This document shows, piece after piece, positions 1,785-55,327 of a stretch of DNA of 64,000 nt (positions are counted from its first letter, which is position 1; each line of letters starts with the position of its first letter). The translations under genes were made by a program, and so were the position numbers. The stretch is from assembly GCA_023230505.1 (NCBI GenBank), contig JALNXF010000006.1, positions 1 to 64,000 on the forward strand, read 5' to 3'. This DNA is from Candidatus Altimarinota bacterium (GTDB lineage: Bacteria; Patescibacteriota; Gracilibacteria; BD1-5; UBA2023). The notes beneath the pieces are model-generated. The model had not been told where the DNA came from. It saw nothing but the letters and a program-made list of their open reading frames with translations, and did not search any database.

Positions 1785-4700
1785 TTATTCCATTGTATTA
1801 ATATATCTGAAAATTTTATTTCTAAAATTTATTCAGGTATATTCATCACTTTCTGGTAATAATGAAGTTGAAATGTTTGAATTTTTTAATGCTTCTTTTA
1901 ATTCTGGATTTTGAAATAAATTATATATTTCAGTACTTAAATCTTTATTGTTTAATATTTCTTTATCTTCATTTTTTACAGTAGCAAGGAAATTATTAAC
2001 AGAATCTGCTATAATTTTTTGAGATGGAGATAAATTACTTTTTGAATGTAAAATATTTACAATTTGTTCTAAATGTCTTACAAGTGTATTTTTACCATAT
2101 ATTAAACCTCCAGTACTACTCTGCTCTATACTTAAAATATTTAATTCTTCGGGTGAAATTATAGAAGAATTAGTTATAATTCTTATTATAAAATTTTCTG
2201 TTAGTCAATAAAGAGTTAATCTCTCACTTAGATTATTAAAAAGTAAAATTGTATTTTCATAATTTTGCATTTTTTCTTTATCCCTGTAAATATCTATACT
2301 TCTTTCTCAAGTGAAAAGTAAAATTCAATTAAGTTTTTCAAAATGAGTATTTATTTTATCATCTAGAAGAGAGGCTCAGAGTATTTTTCATACAATATTT
2401 GAATGATCTCAACTATCAATTGTTATTAGTTCTTGTAATAAATTTGTCATTTCAGCAAAATCATCTTCACTTGGCTTTTCTTTTTTTAAAATTTCTTCTA
2501 TTTTATCAACTTTTTTTAAATCTTTTTCTATTTTATCTTTTTGTAAAATATAATCTACCCTATGAATTCTATCTTCTTTATTTTCTTTAAAATGTGAATA
2601 ATCTAATTTTGATTTAGTAAAAGGTTTTAAAGAAGCGATGTATTTTTTTATTTCATCTTTTTTAAAAAGTGCTACTGCTTTTTGTAAGTCACCTTTAGTT
2701 GGCCATTCTGAACTATATCAATTTCTTAAATAATCAAATCTTAATTGAAAATCTCAAAATGATTGTATTATTTTTAATTTAATGAAATTAACAGGAATTT
2801 TTTCTGCTCTTTTTTTGATTTCAGTTCTTTTTCATTTTCAACTTTCTGTTGGATAACTTTCTTTTTTTATTATAATTTTTGCTAGGTTTTGGTTTTGTTT
2901 AGTATCTATGGCAATATTTATAACGTTATCATCAATAGGGCGGATATCAATCTCTGGATGAAAGCTCTCATTTGTAACTTCTGAAAGTATTTTATCAATT
3001 TCTTCTAAAGTTAATACTATTTTAAGATTTTGAGGAACTTTTCATTCAAAAAAATCATTTTCTTTTACATTTTTTGATTTCATAGATCTTTCTATGAATT
3101 TAACCATAAATTCATTTTGTAAATAATCATTTAGGTTTGCTATCTTTAATAAATTTGGATATTTCTTATATTTATTTAAATCCAATACTTTCTTTTTAAT
3201 TCTTGAAAAAATTCTTTTTGAATTATCTCCAGGAAAAGAAATAATATCTACATAATCAGCATAAACAGCTTCGGCTTGTGCAAAAGTTGTATCTGCTTTT
3301 ACTTTTTTAATATGAGCAGAAAATAACTCATCTATATTTTTTGTATCAAAATACATTATAGGCCTATTAATATTTGCTGCATCTCTATTTAAATCATTCT
3401 CACTTTGCATTGTTCAAGTTAATTGCAGAGCTTTAATCTGCTGTGCATAGTAATACCACAAAAGATTTCTTCTTTGCTGTTCATAATCAGGCGCTAATTT
3501 ATCTAACTTATCAAATGCTTCTTTTTCAAAAATTGGAATTCTTGATTTTAAAACTCATTCGATGGAATCCCCTGGCCTTAAATCATATGTTCTTTTTTCT
3601 TTTAATTTTGAGAAAATATTTCCAAAATCTTTTTTAAAAAAGCTAGATTTTTCAGTTGGTTCAATTAATTCTGAAGGATAAAAAACACCACTCACAATAA
3701 ATTCCCATAAAAATCTACTTCTTGCATTCATATTTTTTACTCTATCTGGATTATCTGAATTCACCATATGAAGTCAGTCTAGCATTATTGGTCAAGATAA
3801 TTCAATATTATCAGATGGCTTAATTATTATTTGTTTTGAGGGATCTTTTTTTAATTCAGTTTCAAGATTTATAGTTTTTCAATTTACTTTAATATTTATT
3901 ATGCTAGCAAATTTTAATAAATTTTCTTTAATAACTGGTTTTTGAGAATCAGATAAAGCCGAAGATCAATAATCAGCCCTTAATTGAACAAAGTTTACTA
4001 AAAAATCACTTACTGGTTGACTCTTTTTTCAATTTAAGCTTTCCTTAATTTTTAATTCAAGATCTGTGATTTGTTTATCATTTTCTATTTTTGATTTTAA
4101 ATTAGTATTATATAAATCAAGCTGTTTAATAATTTCAGGAAACTTTGAAAACTTATCTTTGTATAAATTTCTATCTATTGGTTCTCAATTCTTAAGCATT
4201 ACCTTAATATCTTTTGCAAGTAAAAATAATTTTTTCTTACCATTAGCTAAATCCACAATCCGGTCAATTGAGGCTTTATTTAGGGGATATTTTTTTGAAA
4301 ATTTTGCGTCTTTATTATTTATGTAAAAATTATATGCTTCATCTTTATTTTCGATATTTGAAACTTTAATTATAAAGCGTTTATAATCTTCATCAATTAC
4401 TCAGTTACTATCTAGAACCACCTTAGTATCAATAATTTTATCAAAAGTCCAAATTATCTCAGTCTTACCTGAAATTATATTATCTAAAGTATCTGAAATT
4501 CCAACCTGTAGTTCAAATAAGTTCTTATCTAAATTTTCTTTTTTTGTTTTTAAAATCTTTAAATCTTTACTTGAAGCTTCTGTATCTATTCAGAAAGGTT
4601 CTTTTTTTCAATCATTTATATTTTTTACTTCAAAAGCCTTAAAAATTTTCTCTCAATTTCACTCAAAAACTGATTGATGAGTGTTATAATGTTTGTTTTT

Positions 4701-5615
4701 CTTTCATTTATTATAATCAGCCACAACTCATTTAAATTTACTAAATTTAAAATAAAACGGCACTAGACTATTTGGAACTCAGCTTTTTTCCAAATATTTC
4801 GTGAGTTTTATCATATCTTTATCAAAACCTTCTTTATCTCAAATTGGATCTGGAGAACCTATTTTAGCAGAATCAAAATTATTCATTAAATTCATTTTTT
4901 GAGTGAATCAAATTGAAATTAACTCTTCTGGAAGCATCCAAGCATCAATATTTTGTTTACGGAAAAATTCATTTTCTTCAGGAGTAAGATCCTCGCTAGA
5001 TACACAATAAAACATATATCTTCTAACTAAATTGGCACAAGAAACTGTACTTTGAGTTCATACATCTACAATTCTTGGATTTTCTTCATCGAATATATAT
5101 TTTTGTGTTTCAATAAAAGATTGTCACATTTTCCATGCGCCCGGTGATTTAGTATTTTCTGGAAAAATATTTCTATTTTCAAAAATACTTCTTTTTAAAT
5201 TTTTTAATTGTTTTTCAGATAAATTCTTTATTACTTCTTGTTTTAATTTTTTGTTTGTTTCTAGTATCCCTGATATTTTTTTAATTTTTTCTAGTTCACC
5301 AAAAAAATTTTCTAATTTATCTTTTTTTGGAACAAGTATTGTATTTCATTTTTTTACGATTATATTTTTTCATCTTTTTTCAAACTCAACTCAAAGTATT
5401 CTATTTACGTCTACTAAATCTTCATAATTTTCAATTCAAAAATTACTGGCAATAACTGAAATATTATCTCATTCCTTTATGGGATAAGGCTCCATTATTT
5501 TTAATAAAGGCCCCTTTAAATTAGCTTTAACTTCTTCTGAGGCTAAGGCTTCTTTTGTAGATTCAACTCAGGAATTTATAGTTTCATCTGTATTATTTTT
5601 TTTATCACCAGCCAA
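1785..5615 (-). CDS. Very large uncharacterised protein with an N-terminal LysM domain
   Basis: 1276 residues, read through many TGA codons. An in-frame TAG lies just before the chosen TTG start (MAGDKKNN), and the next ATG would delete part of the only recognisable domain. Residues about 44-97 form a LysM module (YPIKEGDNISVIASNFG at the start, NTILVPKK at the end), which suggests binding of peptidoglycan or a related glycan. Further on, STVSCANLVRRYMFYC (Cys about 193) faintly recalls the active-site start of NlpC/P60 or CHAP hydrolases, but no clear His partner was identified. The remaining thousand residues are Lys/Asn-rich, mostly helical-looking and unfamiliar. No signal peptide is visible. 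It has its own strong promoter. It may be a cell-envelope enzyme or host-attachment protein; the function is not known. Confidence 0.75.
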
Positions 5616-11072: not shown

Positions 11073-13019
11073 CTATTTCTTCAAAATATTCACGAAAGTC
11101 TCGGATGGGATACTCACTTTCCCAAATTGTTTCATTTTTTTCTTTCATTCTTTTTGTTTTTCGAGTACCTTTCTTTTACGAGTAATATCTCATCCATAAA
11201 GCTTCGCTGTCACATCTTTACGAAGTGCTCAGATGTCTTCACGAGCTATTACTTGAGCTCAAATTGTAGCTTGGATTGCAATTGCAAATTGAGCTTTTGG
11301 AATATTTTCTTTTAGTTTTGCACAAATTTTAGCTCCAGTATATCTGGCTTTATCTTTGTGAACTAGCATAGAAAGAGCCTCTACTTTTTCTCCGGCAACC
11401 AAGAAATCTACTTTAACAATTTCATCTTTTTTGAATTTAATAAATTCGTAATTAAGACTAGCATAACCGCTTGACAAACTCTTTAAATCATCGTAAAAAT
11501 CTCAAACAAGCTCCGCCATTGGAATTTCATAAACTATTACAGCTCTGGTTGGATCTAGAAAATACTGATTTACAAAAATTCATCTGCGATCTTGAGCAAG
11601 TTGCATCATAGCTCAAATATAGACAGAATTTGCGATAATTTCTACCTTTGCTATTGGCTCATCTATGTGGATATATGTCCCCGGTTTTGGTAAATCTTCT
11701 GGATTAGAAAAATATACATAAGTGCAAGTATGGCCTTCAAAATCAAGAATTTCTGTTTTAAATCTATTGTATTGTTCAACTTTATTTCCTGACAAAAGCA
11801 CTCTGTAAGTCACTTGCGGACTCGTCATAATTACATCAATTTCAAATTCTCTCCAAAGTCTTTCTTTTACTATATCAAGATGAAGAAGTCACAAAAATCC
11901 ACATCTAAACCCATAACCAAGCGCTGGTGAGACTTCATTTTCAACAGTTAGCGATGAATCATTAAGACACAACTTATCAATACTATCTTTTAATTTCAAA
12001 TATTCGTCATTATCAACCGGATAAATCCCCGCAAATACAAATGGATTTATTTTTTTAAATCAAGTAATTCAAAATTTATATTCCTTGTCTCCAGCAAAAA
12101 TCGTATCTCCAACTCTGGCTTCAGTAATTGATTTAAGTCAGGTTACAACATATCAAATTTCTCATTCATTAAGTATTCCACTTGAATTATATTTTGGCGC
12201 AAAAAATCATACATCAATTGCTTCTATTTTGGCTCCAGAATTCACTAATTCTAATTTATCTCATTTTTTTATAGTTCCAGAAAATAATTTCAAATATATC
12301 ACAACTCATTTATAAGTGTCATACTGCGAATCAAAAATAAGAGCTTTTACAACATTTCCCTCACCCCCTGCCCCTCTCCCAAGGGTAGAGGGGGGTTTTA
12401 AATTATTATTTCAATATTCTCCCTCTCCCTCCGGGAGAGGGTTGGGGTGAGGGACGGAAATAATATTACTCTCTTTATCAAGTTTTCTTGGAAGTGGAAT
12501 TTTCTCGACTATCTCATCAAGAAGAGTTTCTACATTTTCTCCAGTTTTAGCGGATACTGAAATAATATCTTCCCTTTTACAACCAAGAAGTGAAATTACT
12601 TCATTACTCACTCTCTCGACATCTGCTGATGGCAAATCAATTTTATTTAAAACTGGGATAATTGTGAGGTCATTATCAAGTGCGAGATACACATTTGAAA
12701 GAGTCTGAGCCTCAATTCACTGAGTCGCATCCACCACTAAAATGGCTCCCTCAACACTTGCAAGACTACGAGAAACCTCATATTGAAAATCCACGTGTCC
12801 CGGAGTATCGATAAGATTAAGCTCCACTCATTTCCAATTCATACGAACCGGAGTAAGTTTGATTGTAATTCATCTTTCTTGCTCTAACTCCATAGTATCA
12901 AGAGTCTGAGATTTCATATCACGCTTCGAGATTGTCCCCGTGATCTCAAGCATCCTATCAGCCAAAGTTGATTTCCCATGGTCAATATGCGCAATAATAC
13001 AAAAATTTCTAATAGACAT
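11073..13019 (-). CDS. lepA: Translation elongation factor 4 (LepA) carrying a repeat insertion
   Basis: 648 residues against about 600 for the family. The GTPase motifs are complete: [26 protein letters not shown] and NKIDLP. The C-terminal LepA-specific region ([20 protein letters not shown]) is present. Between the G domain and domain II, residues about 187-221 are a foreign insert made of two inverted copies of the palindromic repeat (12358-12395 and 12419-12454). They read [14 protein letters not shown] and [13 protein letters not shown] and are joined by a short AT-rich spacer. The reading frame is kept, and conserved LepA sequence resumes at [11 protein letters not shown], so the protein is probably active with an extended linker. 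LepA acts on stalled or mis-translocated ribosomes. Confidence 0.93.
12358..12395 (-). repeat. Palindromic repeat copy A in lepA
   Basis: GC-rich element beginning ccctcaccccctgcccctct and closed by an imperfect hairpin. It lies inverted to copy B, 23 bases away, in the same geometry as the pair flanking the DUF559 insert at 34760-35201. Read in lepA it gives [13 protein letters not shown]. Confidence 0.85.
12419..12454 (-). repeat. Palindromic repeat copy B in lepA
   Basis: The plus strand begins ctccctctccctccgggaga, with a hairpin arm followed by the ggttggggtgaggga tail. In the lepA frame it encodes [13 protein letters not shown]. Confidence 0.88.
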
Positions 13020-18207: not shown

Positions 18208-18843
18208 AAAATGAAATCAAAAAAAGAAATATCTGAAATTTTTGATAAAATATACAATCTTTATCCAAATTTTAAAACTGAGCTTTATTATAAAACCGAT
18301 TTTCAATTGGTTTTGGCCGTCGTTATGTCAGCTCAAGCAACTGATAAACAAGTCAATAAAATAAATAAAGAATTTTTTGAAAAAGTGGAAAATCCAGATG
18401 ATTTAGCTAAGTTATCTCTTGATGAAATTGAAAAATATCTAAAAAGTCTCAATTACTACAAAAATAAATCAAAATATATTAAAAATCTCTGAGAAATTCT
18501 TTACAAAAAATATAATTCTGAAATTCCAAATAACCTAGAAATACTTAAAACCCTGCCCGGAATTTGAATAAAAACCGCTAAAGTAATACTCTGAGTCCTC
18601 TATGATGCGCCTTATATTTGAGTAGATACTCATATTCATAGAATCTCAAATAGAATCGGTTTTGTAAAAACAAAAACCCCCGAACAAACTGATAAAGTAC
18701 TAGAAAAGAAATTAACTCTGTCTCAAAAAAGAAAAATGCATCACGCTCTAGTTTTGTTTTGAAGATATAATTGTCCAGCCATAAAACCAAAATGTGAATG
18801 ATGTGCAATAAATAATTTATGTGATTATTATTCTGTTATTTAA
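18208..18843 (+). CDS. nth: Endonuclease III, DNA glycosylase/AP lyase
   Basis: 211 residues, normal length. It excises oxidised pyrimidines and cleaves the AP site. Visible motifs are the Hh[18 protein letters not shown] (catalytic Lys in GIKTAK), the catalytic Asp in VDTHIHRI, and the 4Fe-4S ligands C-x6-C-x2-C-x5-C at the C-terminus ([19 protein letters not shown]). I start at MKSKKEIS; an upstream in-frame ATG would add a basic tail not seen in the family. The stop shares four bases with the convergent miaB stop. Confidence 0.94.
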
Positions 18844-20297
18844 ATTATTTCTCCCTCGATTATCCGGCCGTTGACTTTGTTTATTTTCACTTTTACAATA
18901 TCTCAGATATTTACTCAATTTTTAATTGGCATTGTAATTTCTTTAAAATTGCGAGTTCTTCAATAAAAATTTGAATTTTTTGAAATTCAAGAAATAATAA
19001 CCTCTTCTGTTTTTCAAATCATTAAATTCGCTCTTTTCTGGAAAGTCTCTTTTAAAATATTATTTAAAATATGCCATCTTCTAGCTTTTTCACTACTTGC
19101 AACATTATCTTTTAAAAGCTTAGATGCTGTAGTTCCAGACCTCTCACTATATCTTGCGATATAGGCAAAATCAAATTCTAGCTCTTTCATAGCCTTAACT
19201 GTATTTTGAAATTGAGCCTCAGTCTCACCTGGAAATCCTACTATAATATCGGTTGAAATTCAAAAATATGGATCTTTGCCTCTTAAATATTCTACTTGTT
19301 TTTTAAAATCAGTGTATGTATGTTTTCTATTCATATTTTTAAGGACCCCATCATCTCCACTTTGGAGTGCAAAATGTAAATAATTACAAGTCTTATCTAA
19401 TTCAAAATGAGCTTCCAGAATATCAGCTGTCATATCATGAGGATTTGACGAAGTAAAGCGAATTCTATCAATTCACTCAATTTTATCTATTTCTTCGAGT
19501 AGCTCACGAAATGGGACATTCTCCCTCTCCCTCTGGGAGAGGGCTGGGGTGAGGGCCCACTTCATTTCTTCCTCATCCCATAATTTGGCTTTGAGTTCTT
19601 TTCCGTAGCTATTTACATTTTGTCATAAAAGTGTGATTTCACAAGCCCCCAATTTAACTACTTCTTTGATTTCAGAGATTATTTCATCCTTATCTCTAGA
19701 TTTTTCTCTTCATCTAGTGAAGGGTACTATACAATAGCTACAAAAATTATCGCATCCAGTCTGGATTACTACATTTGCAAAAGCTTTATTTTCGCTCAAT
19801 TGTTTTATTTTAAGATAATCGTTATATTTCTCATCATTTCAAATATCAGAATTTAATAAAATCGACAAAATTTTAGTTATATACCCTAATTCCTCAATTC
19901 TAAAAACAAAATCTACCTTGTCTGTTTTTCCAAAAATTTTGTCATCGCTATTAAAAAGTGAATTTTTATCTTCCAAAAATTCTATATTTTTACTCGCATT
20001 TCTTTTTCTAATTTGTGTATAGAATTTCTGATTAATTCCTGTTTTTCTGGCCATACAACCAGTAATTCCAACTAAAATATTAGTATTTTTTTTCGTATTA
20101 TATTTCTTGATACTATTTACGATTGAATAAACTTTATCTTCTCATTTTTTTCTTACACTACAAGTATTTAATATTACAATTTGAGCTTGCTCAAAAGAGT
20201 TCACTTTTTTAAGTCAACTCCGCAACAAAATCATATTTATTTTTTCTGAGTCAGCATAATTCATCTGACAACCAAAAGTCTCTATGTAGTAATTCAT
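18840..20297 (-). CDS. miaB: tRNA-2-methylthio-N6-dimethylallyladenosine synthase MiaB with repeat insertion
   Basis: 485 residues. A radical SAM methylthiotransferase acting on A37 of tRNAs. The N-terminal domain Cys residues (ETFGCQMNYADSE, LNTCSVRKKG, GITGCMARK), the radical SAM motif TGCDNFCSYCIVPFTRGRE and the C-terminal TRAM region are present. Between LLGQNVNSYG and VPFRELLEEI a palindromic repeat (19521-19556) is inserted in frame and read as ALTPALSQREREN, residues about 247-260, in a normally variable loop. A further ~40-residue lysine-rich stretch follows the third Cys. Function is probably intact. Confidence 0.92.
19521..19556 (-). repeat. Palindromic repeat inside miaB
   Basis: Begins ctccctctccctctgggaga on the plus strand and ends in the ggctggggtgagggc tail. 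It is almost identical to lepA copy B, but read in another frame (ALTPALSQRERE). No partner copy nearby. Confidence 0.88.
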
Positions 20298-33800: not shown

Positions 33801-35642
33801 ATGAAGAAATGAGAAATTCTTGAGAATATTAAGGTTGAAAAATTAATTTTTGGTGGAAAATGATTAGCAATTGGTCCAGATTGAAAAAAAATTATTATTA
33901 CAGGGGGTGCTATTCCAGGAAGTTTTGTTAATTTAAGAATTTTGAAATCTAAAAGCAAATATCTTGAAGCTCAAGTTCTGGATATTATAAAAAAATCTCC
34001 ACTTGAAAAAGAACTACCAGCTCATTTTCAAGTATACTGAGGTTGTAAATGGCTCCCAATAGACTACAGCGAGCAATTAAAAATCAAAGAAGAACAAGTA
34101 AAAGAAGCATTATTTCACTTAAAAGATTTCACAAAAAATACTAAATTTCATCCCATAGTGGCTTCAGAAAAAATCTATTGATATAGAAATAAATTAGAAT
34201 TCTCTTGGGGAAAATATATCTCAGCAAAAGAAGAAATTCATGATGATTTTAGGTTTGGTTTTCACAAACAAGGAGAATTTGATAGAATAATAAATTGTGA
34301 GTACTGTGTGCTAGCATCAGATATTGTAAATGATATTTTTAAGGAAGTAAATACTTATTCAAGAAATAGCAAAATTCCAACTTATGATCCATTTAATGGG
34401 ATTTGATTTTGGAGACACTTGGTCGTTAGAGAAGCTCATTATACTGGGGAGATTATGTTAATTTTTAGTGTAAATAATAAAGCCCTCACCCCAACCCTCT
34501 CCCAGGGGGAGAGGGAGAAGTTTATGATTAATTTTCTAGATTTTATCAAAAAATTAGTTATAAAATTTCCAAATATTAAATCAGTTTATTATTTAAAAAA
34601 TAATTGAAAGGCTGATATAGTTCAGGGAGAATATGAATTAATTTTTTGAGAAAAAACTATAAAAGAAAAATTACTTGACTTTACTTTTGAAATAAATCCT
34701 AGAAGTTTTTTTCAGACTAATTCAACTCAAGCTGAAGTACTGTATTCTAAAGTTATAAACCTCATCCCCAGCCCTTCTCCACAAATGGAGAAGGGAGATT
34801 GAGAAATTGAATATGTTAAAGTTCCTGGTTACATTTACGAATTAGCTAGAGAATTAAGAAAAGATTGAACAAACATGGAAAAAATCTTATGGGAAATGAT
34901 AAAAAATAGACAAGTTTGAAATTTGAAATTCAGAAGACAACATCCAATATGAAGATATATTGCTGATTTTTATTGTCCAGAATTATGACTAGTTATAGAG
35001 CTTGATTGAGATATCCATGATAAAGAAACTCAAATAGAGTATGATAAAATTAGAGATGAATTTTTAAAAAGTTGAAATTATAAAATTCTAAGAATGAAGA
35101 ATGAATATTTATTAAAAAATCCAGAATTAGTAATCAAAAAAATTCTTTCATACAAATTTAACTCCCCTCTCCATTCCATGGAGAGGGGTTGGGGGTGAGG
35201 TGTAATGCTAGATTTATATGCTGGGACAGGAACAATTTGAATAATTTTATCAAAATATTTTAAAAAAGTTTATTCAGTTGAACTCGTAAAAGAAGCTAGT
35301 ATTGATGGACAAAATAATGCAAAATTAAATAATGTGGAAAATGTGGAATTTATTAATGAAAAGACAGAAGATTTTTTGAAAGAATTTAGCCAAAAAAATG
35401 AAAAAGTAGATTTATTAGTGATAGATCCGCCACGCGATGGAATGCATCCAGAAGCACTTCCAAATATAATTTCATTTGATGCTAAAACCATAATTTATGT
35501 GAGTTGTAATCCATCAACTCTGGCTCGCGACCTAGATTATATTGTAAAAAATTCAAGCTATGAAATAGCTGATGTTATTCCTGTGGATATGTTTCCACAC
35601 ACTCACCATATTGAGACAATTGTAAAATTAAGCTTGACTTAA
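33801..35642 (+). CDS. 23S rRNA (uracil-C5) methyltransferase, RlmD/TrmA family, with inserted DUF559 domain
   Basis: 613 residues against roughly 430-460 for the family. The N-terminal TRAM-like part (KVEKLIFGGKGLAIGPDGKK), the central KIYGYRNKLEFSWGKY and RSFFQTNSTQAEVLYSKV, the SAM site MLDLYAGTGTIGIILSK, DPPRDGMHPE, and the catalytic loop YVSCNPSTLARDL all mark a uracil-C5 methyltransferase. Three palindromic repeats interrupt it in frame. One lies at residues about 228-239. The other two enclose a complete DUF559 nuclease domain (residues about 334-453) placed between LYSKV and the SAM-binding strand. The frame is preserved throughout, so a single long protein is predicted. Catalytic motifs on both sides are intact. 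There is no intein or intron signature. Confidence 0.92.
34483..34517 (+). repeat. Palindromic repeat copy 1 in the RlmD-like gene
   Basis: ccctcaccccaaccctctcc followed by the complementary gagaggga arm. Read ALTPTLSQGERE, the same frame as the miaB copy. Confidence 0.9.
34760..35201 (+). mobile_element. DUF559 nuclease module bounded by inverted palindromic repeats
   Basis: Left boundary 34760-34797 (cctcatccccagcccttctc, reading LIPSPSPQMEKGDGE) and right boundary 35163-35201 (the inverted counterpart, reading SPLHSMERGWGG) enclose 365 bases. These encode a full DUF559 domain: VPGYIYELARELRKDGTNME, LWEMIKNRQVGNLKFRRQHP, then IGRYIADFYCPELGLVIELD and GDIHD. The Asp of ADFYC and the Glu/Asp of IELDG fit a PD-(D/E)xK nuclease site. 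The right repeat carries an in-frame TGA (GGG TGA GGT), tolerated only because UGA is Gly here. The whole unit looks like a small transposable or homing-type element in a host gene. Mobility is inferred, not shown. Confidence 0.7.
35163..35201 (-). repeat. Inverted palindromic repeat closing the DUF559 insert
   Basis: tcccctctccattccatgga followed by gaggggttgggggtgaggt. It is the reverse complement of the class seen at 34483 and 34760, with diverged loop bases. Confidence 0.85.
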
Positions 35643-48047: not shown

Positions 48048-51000
48048 TTATTTCTTCAACTTTAACTCAAATTTACCTTCATCAATTTCAAGATTTTTCG
48101 AAATATCAAAATCGCTTAAATTAGTAATTTTCGATAAAGTTTCACTTTCTATATAATCTCTAAATAAATTTAGAATTTGATCTATTTTATCTCAAGTTAT
48201 AGATAATTTAATTCTATCAGATACATTATATTCTGCTTCTTTACGAGCATCTTGTATAGTTCTAATTAAATCACGAGCAATTCATTCAAGTTTTAACTGC
48301 TCTGTTATTTTCGTATCAACTGCGATTACCATTCCAAATCCTGCTTCGATATCTACTTCAACTCAAGATAATGGCTCATAAGCAATTTCATATTCTCATT
48401 CTTCTAGAATAAAACCAGAAATCCCCTCTCCCTCTGGGAGAGGGTTAGGGTGAGGGATTTTAATTCTTCATTCTCATAAATCTTGGAAATTTCAGTTTTT
48501 TGCTTGAATTATTATATTTTGTACGTCTTTTCAAAATCTTGGACCGATTAATTTAGCATTTGGGCGACAGATTTTTTTGGCAATTTGAGTCATATCAGAA
48601 AGTATTATTATTTCTTTAATATTTAATTCTTCTTTAATAATTTCTTGGTAATAAGGTTCTAATTTTTCTCAAATAGTTAGAGAAGTAAGTGGTTGTCTTA
48701 CTCTTATTTTTTTATTAGCGCGGAGAGCCAACCCGAGATTTATGATTTTTTGGGTTTTTTCCATTTGAGAATTTAAGCTTTCTGAAATTAAATCACTTTT
48801 ACATTCTGGATAATTTTCTAGGTGAACTGATTCTTTATTTGTAAGATTTTTAAAAACTTCCTCACTCACAAATGGCATTATTGGAGCAATAACTTTAGAT
48901 AATTCCACTAATACCTCATAGAGCGTATGATAAGCTCATATTTTATCTCAATCATTTTCTGACTTCCAAAATCTACGACGAGAGCGACGAATATACCAAT
49001 TTGTAAGATTATCCATAAAATCAAAAATTGGACGAGTAACAGCATTTAAATCATAAGTTTCAAATCAATTATTTGTACTTTTTATTAACTCTTGAAGTTG
49101 AGATAATATCCACTTATCTAAATTATTAAAACTTGACTCACCTAAGTACTTATAAACTTCTTTTTCTTTTCACTCAAATTTATCAATATTCGCGTAAGTT
49201 GTAAAAAATGAATAAGTATTCCAAAATGGCAAAATAACTTTTTTAATAATCTCTTCTACTCAGCTTTCCGAAAATTTCATATCTTCAGCCTTAACCGCAC
49301 CTGAATTCATCATATAAAATCTTATAGCGTCAGCTCAGTGTTTATCTATTAATTTCTCTGGATCTGGATAATTATTCAAAGATTTACTCATTTTACGTCA
49401 ATCCTCAGCCAAAACTATTCAGTTTACAATTACATTTAAATATGGAGTTCTATCAAAAAGCAAAGTTCCTAAAATCATAAGAGTATAAAACCATCATCTA
49501 GTTTGGTCAATTCACTCAGCGATAAAATCACCTGGATATTTAAAATCCTCTTTTCATTTAAATGGATAATGTTTACTCGCATAAGGCATAGATCCAGACT
49601 CAAACCAGCAATCAAGAACTTCTGGAATACGAGTTAAAACTGTTCCAGTTTTTGGATGTTTTAATTTGATTTTGTCCACAAAATGTTTATGTAAATCTAC
49701 TTCAATTCCCTCTTCTACATAGAAATATTTATATTCCATATTCTCCTCTCCTTGCGAAAGAAAGGTTGGGTGAGGTCTTTTCTCAATTTGCCCAAAATCT
49801 TTATTTAATTCGTACAATTCCTCTATACTTCAAACGCAATAAATCTCTTCCTTATCTTCACTTCTCCAGATGGGCATAGCACTACCCCAATATCTATTAC
49901 GGGATATATTCCAATCGCGAGCTTGAGCTATCCATTTTCCAAATCTTCAATCTTTAATATTTTCAGGAACCCAATTTACCTCAGCATTATTTTTAACTAA
50001 TTTATTTGCTACTTCCTCAACCTTCACATACCAAGCGCTAATTCCACGATAAATTAGCGGAGTTTTACATCTATAACAATGAGGATATGAATGATTTATA
50101 GTTGAAATATTAATTATATCTCACCTTGTTTTTAGCATTTGTATTACTTTTTCATTAAAATCAAACACATAATCTCCGCTATTTTCAAATAAATTCTCTA
50201 CTTTTCCTGTATCATCAATATGAGAAACAACTCATAAATTTTCTTTTTTTCAAATAATAGAATCGTCCTCTCAATAAGCTGGTGCGATGTGAACTACTCA
50301 AGTTCCACTCTCGGTTGTTACATGATGACCAATTACAACTCTGTAGACGTTTTCTCAAAGTTCCATTCATTTTGGTAGGTCTCCCGCATCACGAAGTAAT
50401 TCAAAATCATTAAAAAGTGGCTCATATTCTATTCCAGCAAGACAACATCATTGATAATTTCTAACTATTTTATAATCAGCTTCATCCTTATAATAATTAG
50501 CGAGTCTATCTGTTGCGAGAATATAAGTCTCTCCGGTTTTTTTATCTAGCACTTCGCTATATTCGATTTCTGCTCAAATAGCAAGTCCGAGATTAGCTGG
50601 AAGTGTCCAGGGAGTAGTCGTCCAAGCTAGGATATATTTATTATCATTTCATTTGATTTTAAATTTAACAGTGGTAGATTTGTCTTGTCTATCTTCATAT
50701 CATTGATTTACTTCAAAATTTGAAAGAGGCGTCGAACATCTCGTACAATAAGGCACAACTCTTTGAGATTCATAAATATGTCATTTATCAAAAAGAGATT
50801 TAAATACCCACCAAACGCTCTCCATAAAATCTTGGTCCATAGTTTTGTAATCATTGTCCATATCTATCCATCTTCCCATTTTCTCTACAATTCTTCTCCA
50901 TTCAGTCGTATATACCATTACATTAGATCTGCATTGCTCATTAAATTCATATACTCAGATTTTATCTTCTATATCGCGTTTCCCCGAGATTTTAAGTTTT

Positions 51001-51293
51001 TTCTCTACAATATTTTCGATAGGAAGCCCATGACAATCCCACCCAAACCTACGCTCCACATATTTTCACTTCATAGTCTGATATCTCGGAATAATATCCT
51101 TAAGCGTTCACCCAAGAAGATGACCATAATGCGGAAGTCCCGTAGCAAACGGAGGTCCATCATAAAATACAAATTCATCCGCTCCAGCGCGAATATCCAA
51201 AGACTTCTGAAAAGTCTTGTTTTTCTTCCAAAAATCTAAAATTTTTGCTTCCAATTCTGGAAAGCTCTGACGAGAATTTACTTGTGGGTACAT
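48048..51293 (-). CDS. ileS: Isoleucyl-tRNA synthetase with two in-frame repeat insertions
   Basis: 1081 residues, the long IleRS type with C-terminal extension. [16 protein letters not shown] contains the HIGH signature (HYGH), and [19 protein letters not shown] contains KMSKS. The editing domain and the anticodon-binding domain ([19 protein letters not shown]) are recognisable. Two palindromic repeats are inserted in frame: residues about 506-517 ([13 protein letters not shown], degenerate) and about 945-957 ([13 protein letters not shown], near perfect). Expression is probably controlled by the T-box at 51844-52036, with the PemK/MazF gene in between. No second ileS is seen. Confidence 0.95.
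48423..48457 (-). repeat. Palindromic repeat in the 3' part of ileS
   Basis: Begins cccctctccctctgggagag on the plus strand and ends ggttagggtgaggga. Reads [13 protein letters not shown] in IleRS. Confidence 0.88.
49743..49776 (-). repeat. Degenerate palindromic repeat in the middle of ileS
   Basis: ctcctctccttgcgaaagaa on the plus strand, then aggttgggtgaggt. The hairpin is weakened by mismatches, so this is probably an older insertion. Reads [13 protein letters not shown]. Confidence 0.75.
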
Positions 51294-52068: not shown

Positions 52069-52941
52069 TTATAAAATAAACAAAACTAAAACTATAAAAG
52101 CCAAAAAAATTGTCGCAATTTGTTTTGAATTTAGTTTTTCTTTAAGGAAAATAAATGTAAGGATAGGAGTTGTAATAACCGAGAATAATCAAATAAAATT
52201 TACAATATTTCAAGATACATATTTGTATCAAATAAAAAATAAAAGTCATCCTGTGAACAAAAATAAGGCAACAGATAAATAACTAATAACTTGGGATTTA
52301 TTTAATTTAAGCTCATTTTTAAGATTTATTTTATTATTAAAGAGAAAAATAGAGAAAAATATTATAGAATAAATAAATATAAAAAATTCAGAATAGAAAA
52401 TCATTTGAACAGGTGTTGCTATCTGATTTTTTATAATGAAATTATTTATTCAATAATAAATAGTCCAGCTAACAGAAGTAATAAAAGCATAAACTGCATA
52501 TTTATTTATTTTTATTTTCTTTTTCTCATTTCTTTCAAATAAAAATAGAGAAATTAATAAAAAATATACGATACTTAAAACTAGTTTTAAATTAGAAAAT
52601 TTTTCAATATCTCAAATGAGGAAAATATTTAAAAAATAAGACAAAAAAACATAAGTAAAAGCAATAACCATAACTATTGCATTATTTAAATGTTTTAATG
52701 CTTTGTATAAAGCCCAAATTCCAGAATATCAAAAAAATCAAATTAATATAAACAATCAAGAAATTTTTAAATCAAAATTTAAAAAAGGAGTTCAAGATAA
52801 TAATAAAAAAGCAAAAGCATAGAAAGATATAAAAAGATATTGATAAAAAAGAGATTTATAAATATCAAAATTGACAGAAATATATTTACTTATTACACTT
52901 CATAAAGAAGTAAGTATCATTCAAATTATTGCGTATATCAT
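52069..52941 (-). CDS. EamA family transporter
   Basis: 290 residues, about ten hydrophobic helices in two EamA halves: TSLGSVISKYISVNFDIYKS near the start and TPILTFIFLKEKLNSKQIAT near the end, the latter close to the family's typical closing motif. A drug/metabolite-type exporter or importer with unknown substrate. Ends 33 bases before the T-box leader. Confidence 0.85.
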
Positions 52942-52950
52942 AGATTTTGT

Positions 52951-52983
52951 TTAAAATAAATATTCTTCGTTTCTTGTTTGTTT
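52951..52983 (-). repeat. 33-bp copy of the 3' end of the NYN gene
   Basis: Identical to 54106-54138, which encodes the last residues QTRNEEYLF and stop of the NYN protein. Here there is no gene body before it. A remnant of duplication or insertion around the dNK and pyrophosphohydrolase genes. Confidence 0.75.
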
Positions 52984-53011
52984 TAGTTTAAAAAAGTTTT
53001 ATAGTAAAAAC

Positions 53012-54084: not shown

Positions 54085-54105
54085 ATTAGTTAAATTATAT
54101 TTAAA

Positions 54106-54810
54106 TTAAAATAAATATTCTTCGTTTCTTGTTTGTTTAGGTTGTGAAATGGGTTTTTTGATATTTTGTTTATTTGGATTTGGTTTATTTATTGTTGATT
54201 TAGTAATATTTGTCTTATTTATTACTGGTCTATTATCAATATTTGACTTAGAAATATTTTGAATATTTTCTTTGCTAGATTTTGATTTATTTGAAGTATA
54301 ATGTCTATATTCAACCTTTTTTCTAATTGATTGTAAATAATCTGTTTTAGAATCTGATGCCTTAAGAAGTAGAGAAGAAAGATATCTTCTATGAGGAGCA
54401 ATAAGCATTAGAAATTTATTATTAGCTACTAAATGTCTGAGTAGACAAGAAAAATCTCAATCTCAACTAACAATTAGAGCTTTATCATATTTATTGTAAT
54501 CAATCATTGCCTGAAGTATTAACTCAGCATCCACATTTCATTTTACTCAAATTCAATCTGGAGTACTTACTACTTCTTTAAAAACTATAACAAATCCTGC
54601 CTTTTGTATTGCGATATACAAGTCTTCCATTCAAGCAATAAATCCTATAAAAACATAAGCTACTTCTATATTATATTGATCTCTTAGATAGTCACGAAAT
54701 TTTTTCCAATCCATTTTCCAACCAAGTTTGTTAAGTCAGGAATTAAGATTTTGCGCATCAATAAAAGCATAATTACTTTTATTTTGTTTTATTTGTTGAT
54801 TTTTATTCAT
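54106..54810 (-). CDS. NYN domain ribonuclease with basic tail
   Basis: 234 residues. The NYN (PIN-like) domain occupies residues 12-145: YAFIDAQNLNSGL, GIGVKGNVDAELILQAMIDY and ALIVSGDGDFSCLLRHL, with the three conserved Asp of the LabA/DUF88 type metal site. The C-terminal ~70 residues are basic, Asn/Lys/Ser-rich and repetitive (NKTNITKSTINKPNPNKQNI), probably an RNA-binding disordered tail. Its 3' end is duplicated at 52951. Confidence 0.85.
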
Positions 54811-54811
54811 A

Positions 54812-55327
54812 TTACTTTTTAAATTTTTTTAATTCTTCTAATTCCTTTACAATATTCTGCATTTGAATTTCAATTTTTTCAATATATTTTATAGTTTTAT
54901 CGGTTTCTAATTCCTCTACCTCATTATCCTCCGTTATTTCATCTACATTTTCTTGGATTTCATCCACATCTTCTTGGATTTCATCGATATCCTTTTCTAT
55001 TAATTCCACGTCTTCTTGGATTTCATCAATATCTTCTTGGATTTCATCAATATCTTCCTCTACTGCTTTAAGACTTTCCGTATTTCTATTTACAGTCATT
55101 TGTATAAAAATAGCAAGATAAATAGCTTCAAGTGATACAACTGTAGTAAGTATTAAAAGCATTTCTTCAAGCTCTATTCAAAATAAAACTGATACGAAAC
55201 AAATAATAAAAAATAAAGTATGTACAATTAAAGACGATTGCGATCCCACCCAATTAGTAAATAATATTGAGAAATCAATGTTATTTTTTTTCTTTCATAT
55301 AGATTTCTTTTTAGTTATTTTTCACAT
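54812..55327 (-). CDS. DUF1003 membrane protein with IDEIQED coiled-coil repeats
   Basis: 171 residues. The start MGKITKKKSIGKKKNNIDFS is basic. Two transmembrane helices follow (about 37-54 and 61-78), with SLEAIYLAIFIQMTVNRNTE, matching the NR-terminated segment of DUF1003. Then residues about 91-133 are near-perfect heptads of the type DIDEIQE, six in a row, followed by an acidic and then basic end. In typical DUF1003 proteins the coiled coil is less regular. It follows pilT by 8 bases. Confidence 0.82.
54929..55057 (-). repeat. 21-bp coding tandem repeats (IDEIQED)
   Basis: About six tandem copies of a 21-base unit (plus-strand form tcttcttggatttcatcaat). Codons are nearly identical between copies, so expansion was recent or is maintained by slippage. 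Confidence 0.8.

What the first reader, a model, noticed from the sequence alone, without database searches (positions are those of the whole stretch)
34760..35201. A DUF559 nuclease domain bounded by inverted palindromic repeats sits in frame inside an rRNA methyltransferase
Seen: an intact DUF559 domain (KFRRQHP, ADFYC, IELDG) interrupts the RlmD-like protein between LYSKV and the SAM-binding strand. Its two edges are inverted copies of a ~38-bp GC-rich repeat found at six other places in this window. Family knowledge: DUF559 proteins resemble Vsr/PD-(D/E)xK nucleases. Inference: repeat plus nuclease form a mobile unit, analogous to REP/RAYT or homing elements but without a transposase or self-splicing, that survives because it keeps the host frame open. 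This is the best candidate here for an undescribed system.
Basis: partly seen in the sequence, partly recalled or inferred. Interest (0 to 1): 0.93.

Follow-up and report, generated by a model that had tools for sequence, protein, structure and literature searches.

The report
Nuclease gene framed by triplex repeats
Inside the gene for a predicted RNA-modifying enzyme, in the same reading frame, sits a small nuclease gene framed by inverted copies of a known bacterial DNA repeat; the same pairing recurs beside this nuclease in many bacteria, so the two likely form an overlooked kind of mobile DNA, with the nuclease as the likely partner of the orphan BoxC repeats of E. coli.

Summary
With TGA read as Gly (table 25), ORF 33801-35642 is one 613-codon RlmD-like frame holding an intact DUF559 domain (112 bits). 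The insert, about 34759-35202, is bounded by inverted hairpin-plus-tag repeats. None of the 80 homologous loci listed has room for it. The repeats are the published BoxC/PIT "intrastrand triplex motif" (TM): four copies match the published pattern exactly (0 in 100 shuffles). The pairing recurs. 78 of 92 DUF559 loci (91 Patescibacteria, 1 Bacteroidota) have inverted-repeat flanks (first 32: 27, against 0 of 28 control loci). 18 of 24 Desulfobacterota loci have a TM on both sides, 24 of 24 on at least one. TM density is 8.35/kb within 50 bp of the domain, 0.11 or less beyond 300 bp. Nuclease and repeat similarity co-vary (Mantel r 0.40). The tag mirrors its own stem (90 of 150, against 22 by permutation). 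DUF559 also lies inside RecG, RecQ, MnmA, TsaD, LeuRS and, at another site, RlmD, often with repeat-type peptides. Best reading: a REPIN/RAYT-like mobile unit whose enzyme is a Vsr/homing-type nuclease. Movement and cleavage are inferred. The open-access library searched showed no earlier DUF559-BoxC link.

The parts
33801..35642 (+). RlmD/TrmA-like 23S rRNA (uracil-5) methyltransferase ORF (table 25), 613 aa, with the insert in frame
34759..35202 (+). repeat-nuclease-repeat unit (about 442 bp) inside the methyltransferase gene
   Evidence: no room for it in any of the 80 listed homologous loci
34759..34795 (+). left triplex-type repeat: tag CCTCATCCCC outermost, then hairpin; an in-frame ATG (34785) lies in its loop
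34839..35150 (+). DUF559 (PF04480) nuclease domain, residues 347-450; predicted PD-(D/E)xK/Vsr-like fold
35164..35202 (-). right triplex-type repeat, inverted: hairpin, then tag GGGGTGAGG outermost; its TGA is read as Gly in the host frame
34483..34515 (+). solo triplex repeat in the same methyltransferase gene (exact TMECO match on the other strand)
12358..12453 (.). doublet of two inverted triplex repeats with a short AT-rich spacer inside lepA-like ORF 11073-13019 (-): REPIN-like unit without nuclease
19523..19555 (-). solo triplex repeat inside miaB-like ORF 18840-20297 (-)
48424..48456 (-). solo triplex repeat inside ileS-like ORF 48048-51293 (-)
49739..49777 (-). degenerate copy of the repeat inside the same ileS-like ORF

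Best explanation
The insert is a repeat-nuclease-repeat unit, an intact DUF559 gene bounded by inverted BoxC-type repeats, and this pairing recurs in at least two bacterial phyla; it likely moves as a mobile element whose nuclease is predicted to act on those repeats. Shown by calls: the anatomy, the homologues without the insert, one presence/absence pair between congeners, the enrichment of the repeat at DUF559 edges, the mirror symmetry of tag and stem, the co-variation of nuclease and repeat, and many in-frame occupations of other genes. Inferred: (1) the DUF559 protein, a Vsr/homing-endonuclease-like PD-(D/E)xK enzyme, recognises the hairpin-plus-third-strand ends when they extrude and nicks there; (2) repair or replication copies the unit, or a two-repeat doublet without the gene, to a new place, leaving no target duplication; (3) insertions inside essential genes survive only when they keep the frame, which is easier in this organism because the TGA in the repeat tag is read as Gly; (4) here the nuclease would be made as part of the methyltransferase chain, or from the in-frame ATG in the loop of the left repeat (34785). 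It thus works like the REPIN/RAYT system with another enzyme family and another repeat family, and would make DUF559 (YcjD) the missing partner of BoxC.
For: Homologues: all 80 listed loci (79 near-complete, spans 1.34-1.54 kb against 1.84 kb here; one contig-end fragment covering the junction) are too short for the insert; 11 of them were aligned and lack it. Association: 78 of 92 DUF559 loci have inverted flanks at z>4, 69 of 92 strong hairpins on both sides; in the first 32 of these 27 and 23, against 0 and 0 of 28 UPF0102 control loci. Triplex-type repeats on both sides: 46 of 91 Patescibacteria and 18 of 24 Desulfobacterota loci, 0 of 28 controls; in shuffled flanks both sides 0, single sides 3 of 182 and 1 of 48. 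Density 8.35/kb within 50 bp of the domain, 0.04-0.11/kb beyond 300 bp, 115 loci. Genomes: repeat hairpin in 46 of 54 genomes with a strong DUF559 hit and 20 of 232 others (p 5e-29); after removing two copies per DUF559 place, 24 of 54 against 20 of 232 (p 4e-9). Tag mirrors own stem at 8/9 or better in 90 of 150 hairpins, permuted mean 21.9, maximum 33 in 500 permutations. Mantel r 0.40, none of 2000 permutations reached it, 64 units. Doublets: 9 of 12 close pairs in 318 kb of one genome have the tag-outward inverted order, 80-86 bp. One congener without the unit. DUF559 inside other proteins: 99 of 120 listed hits interior (the window's own included), repeat-type peptides on both sides in 57 and on one side in 29, control 37 of 330 segments; 6 of 10 tested have host Pfam domains on both sides. 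Fold: 3hrl (a gonococcal endonuclease-like protein) and the homing endonuclease I-Bth0305I catalytic domain are the top solved matches. E. coli: 37 of 60 sampled rows with ycjD have a median of 35 repeat-type places, 23 without have 7.
Against: No movement, excision or cleavage was observed. No target-site duplication was found (64 units; edges uncertain by a few bases), so the insertion chemistry is open. 7 of 92 loci show neither inverted flanks nor hairpins on both sides, the single tested Bacteroidota locus among them; of 8 plasmid-collection loci L244 and L246 scored negative, L239 and L245 only 2.3 and 2.6, and the score of E. coli L242 (5.2) does not come from the repeats. In some pairs (L159/L165, L116/L150) similarity runs far past the unit, so those units were inherited in place. 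20 of 232 genomes hold the hairpin without a strong DUF559 hit, one of them 75 copies (G076, weak partial DUF559 only). The tag lies outward in 14 and inward in 41 of 64 units, 9 mixed, and the order does not clearly follow the nuclease (nearest neighbour alike in 36 of 64, permuted mean 29.7, maximum 45), so 'one unit, one order' is not strict. The Mantel test does not remove shared ancestry of the genomes. E. coli ycjD has the repeat downstream only, degenerate in K-12; its upstream palindrome is of another kind. The exact junction in rlmD is not resolved at the nucleotide level, and the closest aligned relative is about 65% identical.
Confidence: 0.72

Rival explanations
1. Hitch-hiking: triplex repeats are spread by something else and merely collect around DUF559 genes, because these sit in dispensable or break-prone spots; the nuclease does not move them.
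For: 20 of 232 genomes carry the hairpin without a strong DUF559 hit. The published work ties these repeats to rearrangement hot spots and found no mobility gene next to them in E. coli. Tag order is mixed.
Against: The repeats peak within 50 bp on both sides and fall about 80-fold by 300 bp, mostly in inverted order, with repeat similarity tracking nuclease similarity, and 0 of 28 control genes from the same 286 genomes show it.
Confidence: 0.15
2. Homing-type parasite: DUF559 is a site-specific homing endonuclease that spreads into the empty allele by break repair; the repeats are only its landing pads or scars.
For: The closest solved structures after 3hrl are the I-Bth0305I homing endonuclease catalytic domain (Foldseek E 1.4e-4 and 4.5e-4). 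RecG carries DUF559 again and again near one place. No target duplication.
Against: Units occupy many unrelated genes and intergenic places, two different places in RlmD, and short doublets without the gene occur at several places, which homing alone does not explain. No self-splicing part was recognised in the insert.
Confidence: 0.1
3. Stable chimera: an old, vertically inherited fusion in which the nuclease domain serves the methyltransferase (for example rRNA binding), with no mobile element involved.
For: Both halves look intact: the DUF559 conserved residues are present, 47 methyltransferase columns are identical in all 16 aligned rows including this one, and the methyltransferase part is predicted with high confidence.
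Against: None of the 80 listed homologues has room for it; P0054 and P0071 carry DUF559 at another place of the same gene; the edges are repeats found elsewhere in the window.
Confidence: 0.03

Closest known systems
BoxC / PIT elements / intrastrand triplex motif TMECO (Holder et al. 2015, PMC4666352; abstract, sections 16 and 18 and searched passages read)
   Same: Same sequence pattern (four exact matches in the window), same hairpin plus third-strand layout, inverted doublets also reported in E. coli
   Different: Described there as always intergenic in E. coli K-12 and without any associated mobility activity; DUF559 and ycjD do not occur in the main text. Here in frame in genes, in a Gracilibacteria-type genome, and tied to DUF559
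REPIN / RAYT system (Nunvar et al. 2010, PMC2817692; passages read)
   Same: Enzyme gene flanked by two palindromic repeats in inverted order, scattered copies and doublets without enzyme, enzyme and repeat co-vary
   Different: Enzyme is a PD-(D/E)xK/Vsr-like nuclease and not an IS200/IS605-type tyrosine transposase; the repeat has a mirror (third-strand) tag instead of a GT(A/G)G head
Rickettsia palindromic elements (passage in the review PMC10969869; primary papers not read)
   Same: Palindromic repeats inserted in frame in many unrelated protein genes
   Different: No nuclease gene is mentioned in the passage read; other sequence and length; not described as a triplex motif there
Vsr-like DUF559 proteins YcjD / VsrA (PMC1189080 and PMC12907096; passages read) and solved relative 3hrl
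   Same: Same family; predicted PD-(D/E)xK nuclease related to Vsr; Caulobacter VsrA is needed for the SOS response seen when a cytosine methylase is missing
   Different: Discussed as repair or restriction proteins; no repeat partner described in the passages read
Homing endonuclease I-Bth0305I (PDB 3r3p; paper not held)
   Same: Nearest solved fold after 3hrl
   Different: Intron-encoded (recalled); no intron or intein was recognised in the insert here

Membership tests
BoxC/TMECO intrastrand triplex motif | Pattern CCCTCNCCC N3-6 GGGNGAGGG N3 GGGNGAGGG (PMC4666352) | tested here: met
   4 exact copies in the window, 0 in 100 shuffles; the two element edges are variants that pass the structural score
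BoxC/TMECO intrastrand triplex motif | Forms an intrastrand triplex | not testable with these tools
   Only mirror symmetry and its co-variation were tested; published biophysics concerns the E. coli sequence
DUF559 (PF04480) | Score above the Pfam gathering cut-off and conserved residues of the family | tested here: met
   112.1 bits against 20.6; 23 of 24 conserved positions kept
REPIN/RAYT | IS200/IS605-type tyrosine transposase | tested here: not met
   In the insert Pfam finds only DUF559 and the overlapping, sub-threshold MTES_1575 endonuclease family
REPIN/RAYT | Gene flanked by two palindromic repeats in inverted order | tested here: met
   (layout only; the repeats are not GT(A/G)G-headed REPs)
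Classical insertion sequence | Target-site duplication | tested here: not met
   64 units, mean longest direct repeat 1.72 against 2.05 permuted; edges uncertain by a few bases, so power is limited
Intein or intron | Self-splicing domain or RNA in the insert | tested here: not met
   No splicing domain in Pfam; no Rfam match at gathering threshold in the window
Mobile element in general | Copies at different places and empty sites in relatives | tested here: met
   movement itself not observed

The most novel reading that the evidence does not exclude
DUF559 nucleases and BoxC/PIT triplex repeats are the two halves of one unrecognised class of bacterial mobile element: a transposase-free system in which a Vsr/homing-type nuclease reads DNA ends folded into an intrastrand triplex, spreads itself and gene-less doublets through genomes from Patescibacteria to E. 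coli, and repeatedly passes in frame through essential genes.
Probability: 0.55. Interest if true: 0.93.

Novelty: new variant of a known kind. Interest (0 to 1): 0.86.

Why it matters
BoxC has been known in E. coli since the 1990s (PMC4666352, passage); that paper names no partner enzyme or mode of spread in what I read, and DUF559/YcjD is a widespread nuclease family without an agreed job in what I read. If the two are one system, both questions become directly testable in E. coli K-12. It would add a second, chemically different route (PD-(D/E)xK nuclease plus triplex ends) to the REPIN/RAYT way of populating genomes with palindromes, link non-B DNA structure to mobility, and show mobile DNA adding whole nuclease domains to housekeeping enzymes.

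Tried and rejected
Intein or intron: no splicing domain or RNA family in the insert. Target-site duplication: none detected in 64 units. Clean empty site for a solo BoxC in E. coli (ypfG-tkt): the alternative alleles carry other sequence in its place, so it shows replacement and not a precise insertion. Loss of ycjD in E. coli as an empty site: two strains without it that I opened carry an efflux operon there (eef in PMC12817139, passages), so it gives no junction. Fusion-wide structure: the methyltransferase part folds with high confidence, the insert poorly, with only 3 of 16 aligned rows carrying DUF559; the domain alone gave pLDDT 90.8. Orientation of the tag as a trait of the nuclease: not supported.

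Rows dropped before counts: 6 of 38 DUF559 loci (L092, L101, L102, L114, L115, L147) and 6 of 30 Desulfobacterota loci for short flanks, 2 of 30 control loci likewise. I fetched 60 of the further DUF559 places listed, not all of them. L148 (Bacteroidota) counts and was left out of the triplex counts (n 91) and later sets. In-frame insertion in lepA, miaB and ileS rests on repeat identity and open frames; those genes were not aligned with empty homologues.

Full report
What is there. The window is read with TGA as Gly (table 25), as its long frames show, and its best rRNA-methyltransferase relatives are mostly contigs labelled Candidatus Gracilibacteria; that it is one of them is inferred. ORF 33801-35642 (+) is a single 613-codon frame. 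Pfam finds a TRAM domain, a tRNA (uracil-5) methyltransferase domain and DUF559 at residues 347-450 with 112.1 bits. The insert runs from about 34759 to 35202. Each edge is a repeat made of a tag and a GC-rich hairpin, the two edges are inverted, and the tag is outermost. Six further copies lie in the window: a doublet in a lepA-like gene (12358-12453), one in a miaB-like gene (19523), one earlier in the same methyltransferase gene (34483), and two in an ileS-like gene (48424, and a degenerate one near 49739). All six lie inside protein genes.

Is it chance or decay? Four copies match exactly the published TMECO pattern of E. coli, with none in 100 shuffled windows. The nuclease domain has the consensus residue at 23 of 24 positions that are at least 90% conserved in the 120 listed proteins, including D389, E400, D402 and H406. 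In the methyltransferase, 47 columns are identical in all 16 aligned rows, this one included. So neither half looks decayed. The insert is open in one of six frames with table 25 and in none with table 11, and the host frame goes straight through the TGA of the 3' repeat. An in-frame ATG lies in the loop of the left repeat (34785; sequence), so a start there is possible; it is untested.

Homologues without the insert. None has room for the insert: 79 cover nearly the whole gene in 1.34-1.54 kb (1.84 kb here), and one contig-end fragment covers the junction. Eleven were aligned. The alignment places the insert in the linker between the LY(S)KV helix and the LDLYAGTG strand; this linker is about 13-14 residues in most of them, and about 7 host residues remain here. 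Two other methyltransferases of the same family, P0054 and P0071, carry DUF559 at a different place, between YIT and GFHK.

What the repeats are. Holder et al. 2015 (PMC4666352; I read the abstract, sections 16 and 18, and searched passages) call them intrastrand triplex motifs, earlier BoxC or PIT elements: 23 copies in E. coli K-12, always intergenic, five inverted doublets, no transposase or integrase found next to them, and copy numbers that differ widely between strains. DUF559 and ycjD do not occur in the main text, nor does a word beginning with 'nuclease' (this does not test 'endonuclease').

The association. A first look at DUF559 loci from Patescibacteria showed inverted hairpins on both sides of most of them. 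Counted: 27 of 32 loci (31 Patescibacteria, 1 Bacteroidota) have inverted flanks at z>4 and 23 have strong hairpins on both sides, against 0 and 0 of 28 loci of UPF0102, a small protein family (YraN, predicted nuclease, recalled) drawn from the same 286 genomes. With 60 more loci: 78 of 92 and 69 of 92; 7 of 92 have neither. A score for hairpin plus mirror tag gives both sides positive in 46 of 91 Patescibacteria loci (either side 73) and 18 of 24 Desulfobacterota loci (either side 24), and 0 of 28 controls; shuffled flanks gave both sides 0 times and a single side 3 and 1 times. Over 115 loci the density of the motif is 8.35 per kb within 50 bp of the domain, 3.91 at 50-100, 1.74 at 100-150, 0.49 at 150-300 and 0.04-0.11 beyond 300; 28 control loci held one motif in all. 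Among 286 genomes the hairpin occurs in 46 of 54 with a strong DUF559 hit and 20 of 232 others (p 5e-29; if the 20 weak hits are counted as having DUF559, 49 of 74 against 17 of 212). After subtracting two copies per DUF559 place, 24 of 54 still have extra copies, against 20 of 232 (p 4e-9).

Structure of the repeat and its partner. In 150 hairpins beside DUF559, chosen by stem strength and a pyrimidine arm but without regard to the tag, the flank mirrors its own stem at 8 of 9 or better in 90 cases; permuting flanks gives 21.9 on average and at most 33 in 500 trials. The tag therefore co-varies with the stem, as a third strand would. Across 64 units, similarity of the nuclease and of the flanking repeats are correlated (Mantel r 0.40, none of 2000 permutations reached it; shared ancestry of genomes is not removed). 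RAYTs and REPs were reported to show matching trees (PMC2817692, passages). Orientation: tag inward in 41, outward in 14 (as here), mixed in 9; nearest neighbours by nuclease share it in 36 of 64, against 29.7 expected, which is not beyond permutation (maximum 45).

Copies without the gene. In 318 kb of genome G191 there are 66 motifs, none in shuffled versions of the first 80 kb. Of 12 pairs closer than 120 bp, 9 are tag-outward inverted doublets of 80-86 bp at different places. The lepA copy in the window has the same layout.

Presence and absence. In G384 (L271) the unit with further repeats lies between stretches that align at 83-85% identity with the congener G310 (L308), where the DUF559 gene and the repeats are missing; the third genome of the genus, G348, gave no such flanks. 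The replaced stretch is not clean, so no base-exact junction follows. Related units at different places share similarity about as far as the repeats (for example L113/L163 in one genome, 463 bp; L156/L161, 430 bp); in other pairs (L159/L165, L116/L150) similarity continues well past the unit, so those stayed in place. No target duplication was detected.

DUF559 inside other proteins. A search for the domain in proteins of roughly 340-1070 residues gave 301 hits, 120 listed. In 99 of these, the window's own included, DUF559 is interior; repeat-type peptide words flank it on both sides in 57, on one side in 29 and on neither in 13, against 37 of 330 control segments. Of ten tested with Pfam, six have host domains on both sides: RecG, RecQ, MnmA, TsaD, LeuRS and a HemN-type radical SAM protein; the others have a host domain on one side. 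In Synechocystis plasmids L239 and L240 the DUF559 gene lies between pieces one of which is annotated as a methylase-type gene.

E. coli. ycjD (DUF559) lies between sapF and fabI; in strain KE47 a complete BoxC-type copy follows it directly, in K-12 that copy is degenerate and a complete one lies farther towards fabI. In 60 rows taken evenly from 5417 matching records, 37 with ycjD have a median of 35 repeat-type places and 23 without have 7 (Mann-Whitney p 3e-10).

The enzyme. The domain model (pLDDT 90.8) matches 3hrl, a gonococcal endonuclease-like protein, and then the catalytic domain of the homing endonuclease I-Bth0305I; Vsr itself follows weakly (1vsr, E 0.24). A 2005 study lists YcjD among earlier identified members of the PD-(D/E)xK superfamily (PMC1189080, passages). 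A DUF559 protein of Caulobacter, VsrA, is responsible for an SOS response when a cytosine methylase is missing (PMC12907096, passages). So a nicking or cutting activity is likely but not shown for this copy.

Reading. The simplest account is a mobile unit that works like REPIN/RAYT: repeat ends, one enzyme gene between them, and gene-less doublets and solos around. It is not a member of REPIN/RAYT, because the defining transposase is absent. It is a member of DUF559 and of the BoxC/TM repeat family by the tests made. What joins them, and whether the enzyme moves the repeats, is inference. The in-frame position here is probably what survives selection: five of the six single repeats in the window have no stop in any of the six frames under table 25, the sixth has stops in two.

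Novelty. In the open-access library, DUF559 occurs in 14 papers, ycjD in 8 and COG2852 in 4; I read passages of three of them (PMC12907096, PMC1189080, PMC12817139) and saw the rest as listings. DUF559 with 'palindromic' gave two papers, neither on this subject by title and abstract; repetitive extragenic palindromic with very short patch repair gave none; other combinations gave only Holder et al. as relevant among the rows listed. Subscription papers and preprints were not searchable, so an earlier description cannot be excluded.

Noticed in passing
L239 and L240 (Synechocystis sp. B12 plasmids), around 2195-5602 and 2340-4864: DUF559 genes with CCTCACCCC-type repeats on both sides lie between gene pieces, one annotated PglX methyltransferase and one DUF1156, as if they split methylase genes.
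   Followed up: partly
L241 (Pseudanabaena plasmid ABRG53a) 2780-3500: DUF559 flanked by a different mirror-type repeat (CCCCCAATTCTGGGGG family), long and nearly identical on both sides.
   Followed up: no
genomes G076 and G153: 75 and 13 copies of the hairpin but only a weak partial DUF559 hit or none: possible survivors of a lost nuclease, or a distant enzyme.
   Followed up: no
P0111 (677 aa): DUF559 in a protein that also carries PF13403 (Hint_2, name recalled) in the precomputed Pfam list: a possible intein-like combination.
   Followed up: no
RecG-like proteins P0005, P0010, P0014, P0015, P0019-P0021, P0026, P0027 and others: DUF559 recurs in RecG-like proteins, mostly in one loop before the motif QVAIMAPTEILARQHF, but also at two other places (P0005, P0010): one old insertion or a hot spot.
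   Followed up: partly
L282-L288, E. coli ypfG-tkt intergenic region: A BoxC copy in some strains is replaced by other repeat-like sequence in others at the same place.
   Followed up: partly
L270 about 1029-1127, genome G431: A piece of about 99 bp roughly 0.4 kb upstream of the DUF559 unit recurs, nearly identical, at 15 other places of the genome.
   Followed up: no
window 52941-52988 and 54096-54143: A 48-bp AT-rich direct repeat (88%) at two gene ends, unrelated to the triplex repeats.
   Followed up: no
window 54936-55061: 21-bp tandem coding repeat (DEIQEDV) likely to lengthen a coiled coil.
   Followed up: no
window 1-64000: No tRNA gene (bacterial code) and no Rfam family at gathering threshold was found in 64 kb.
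   Followed up: no
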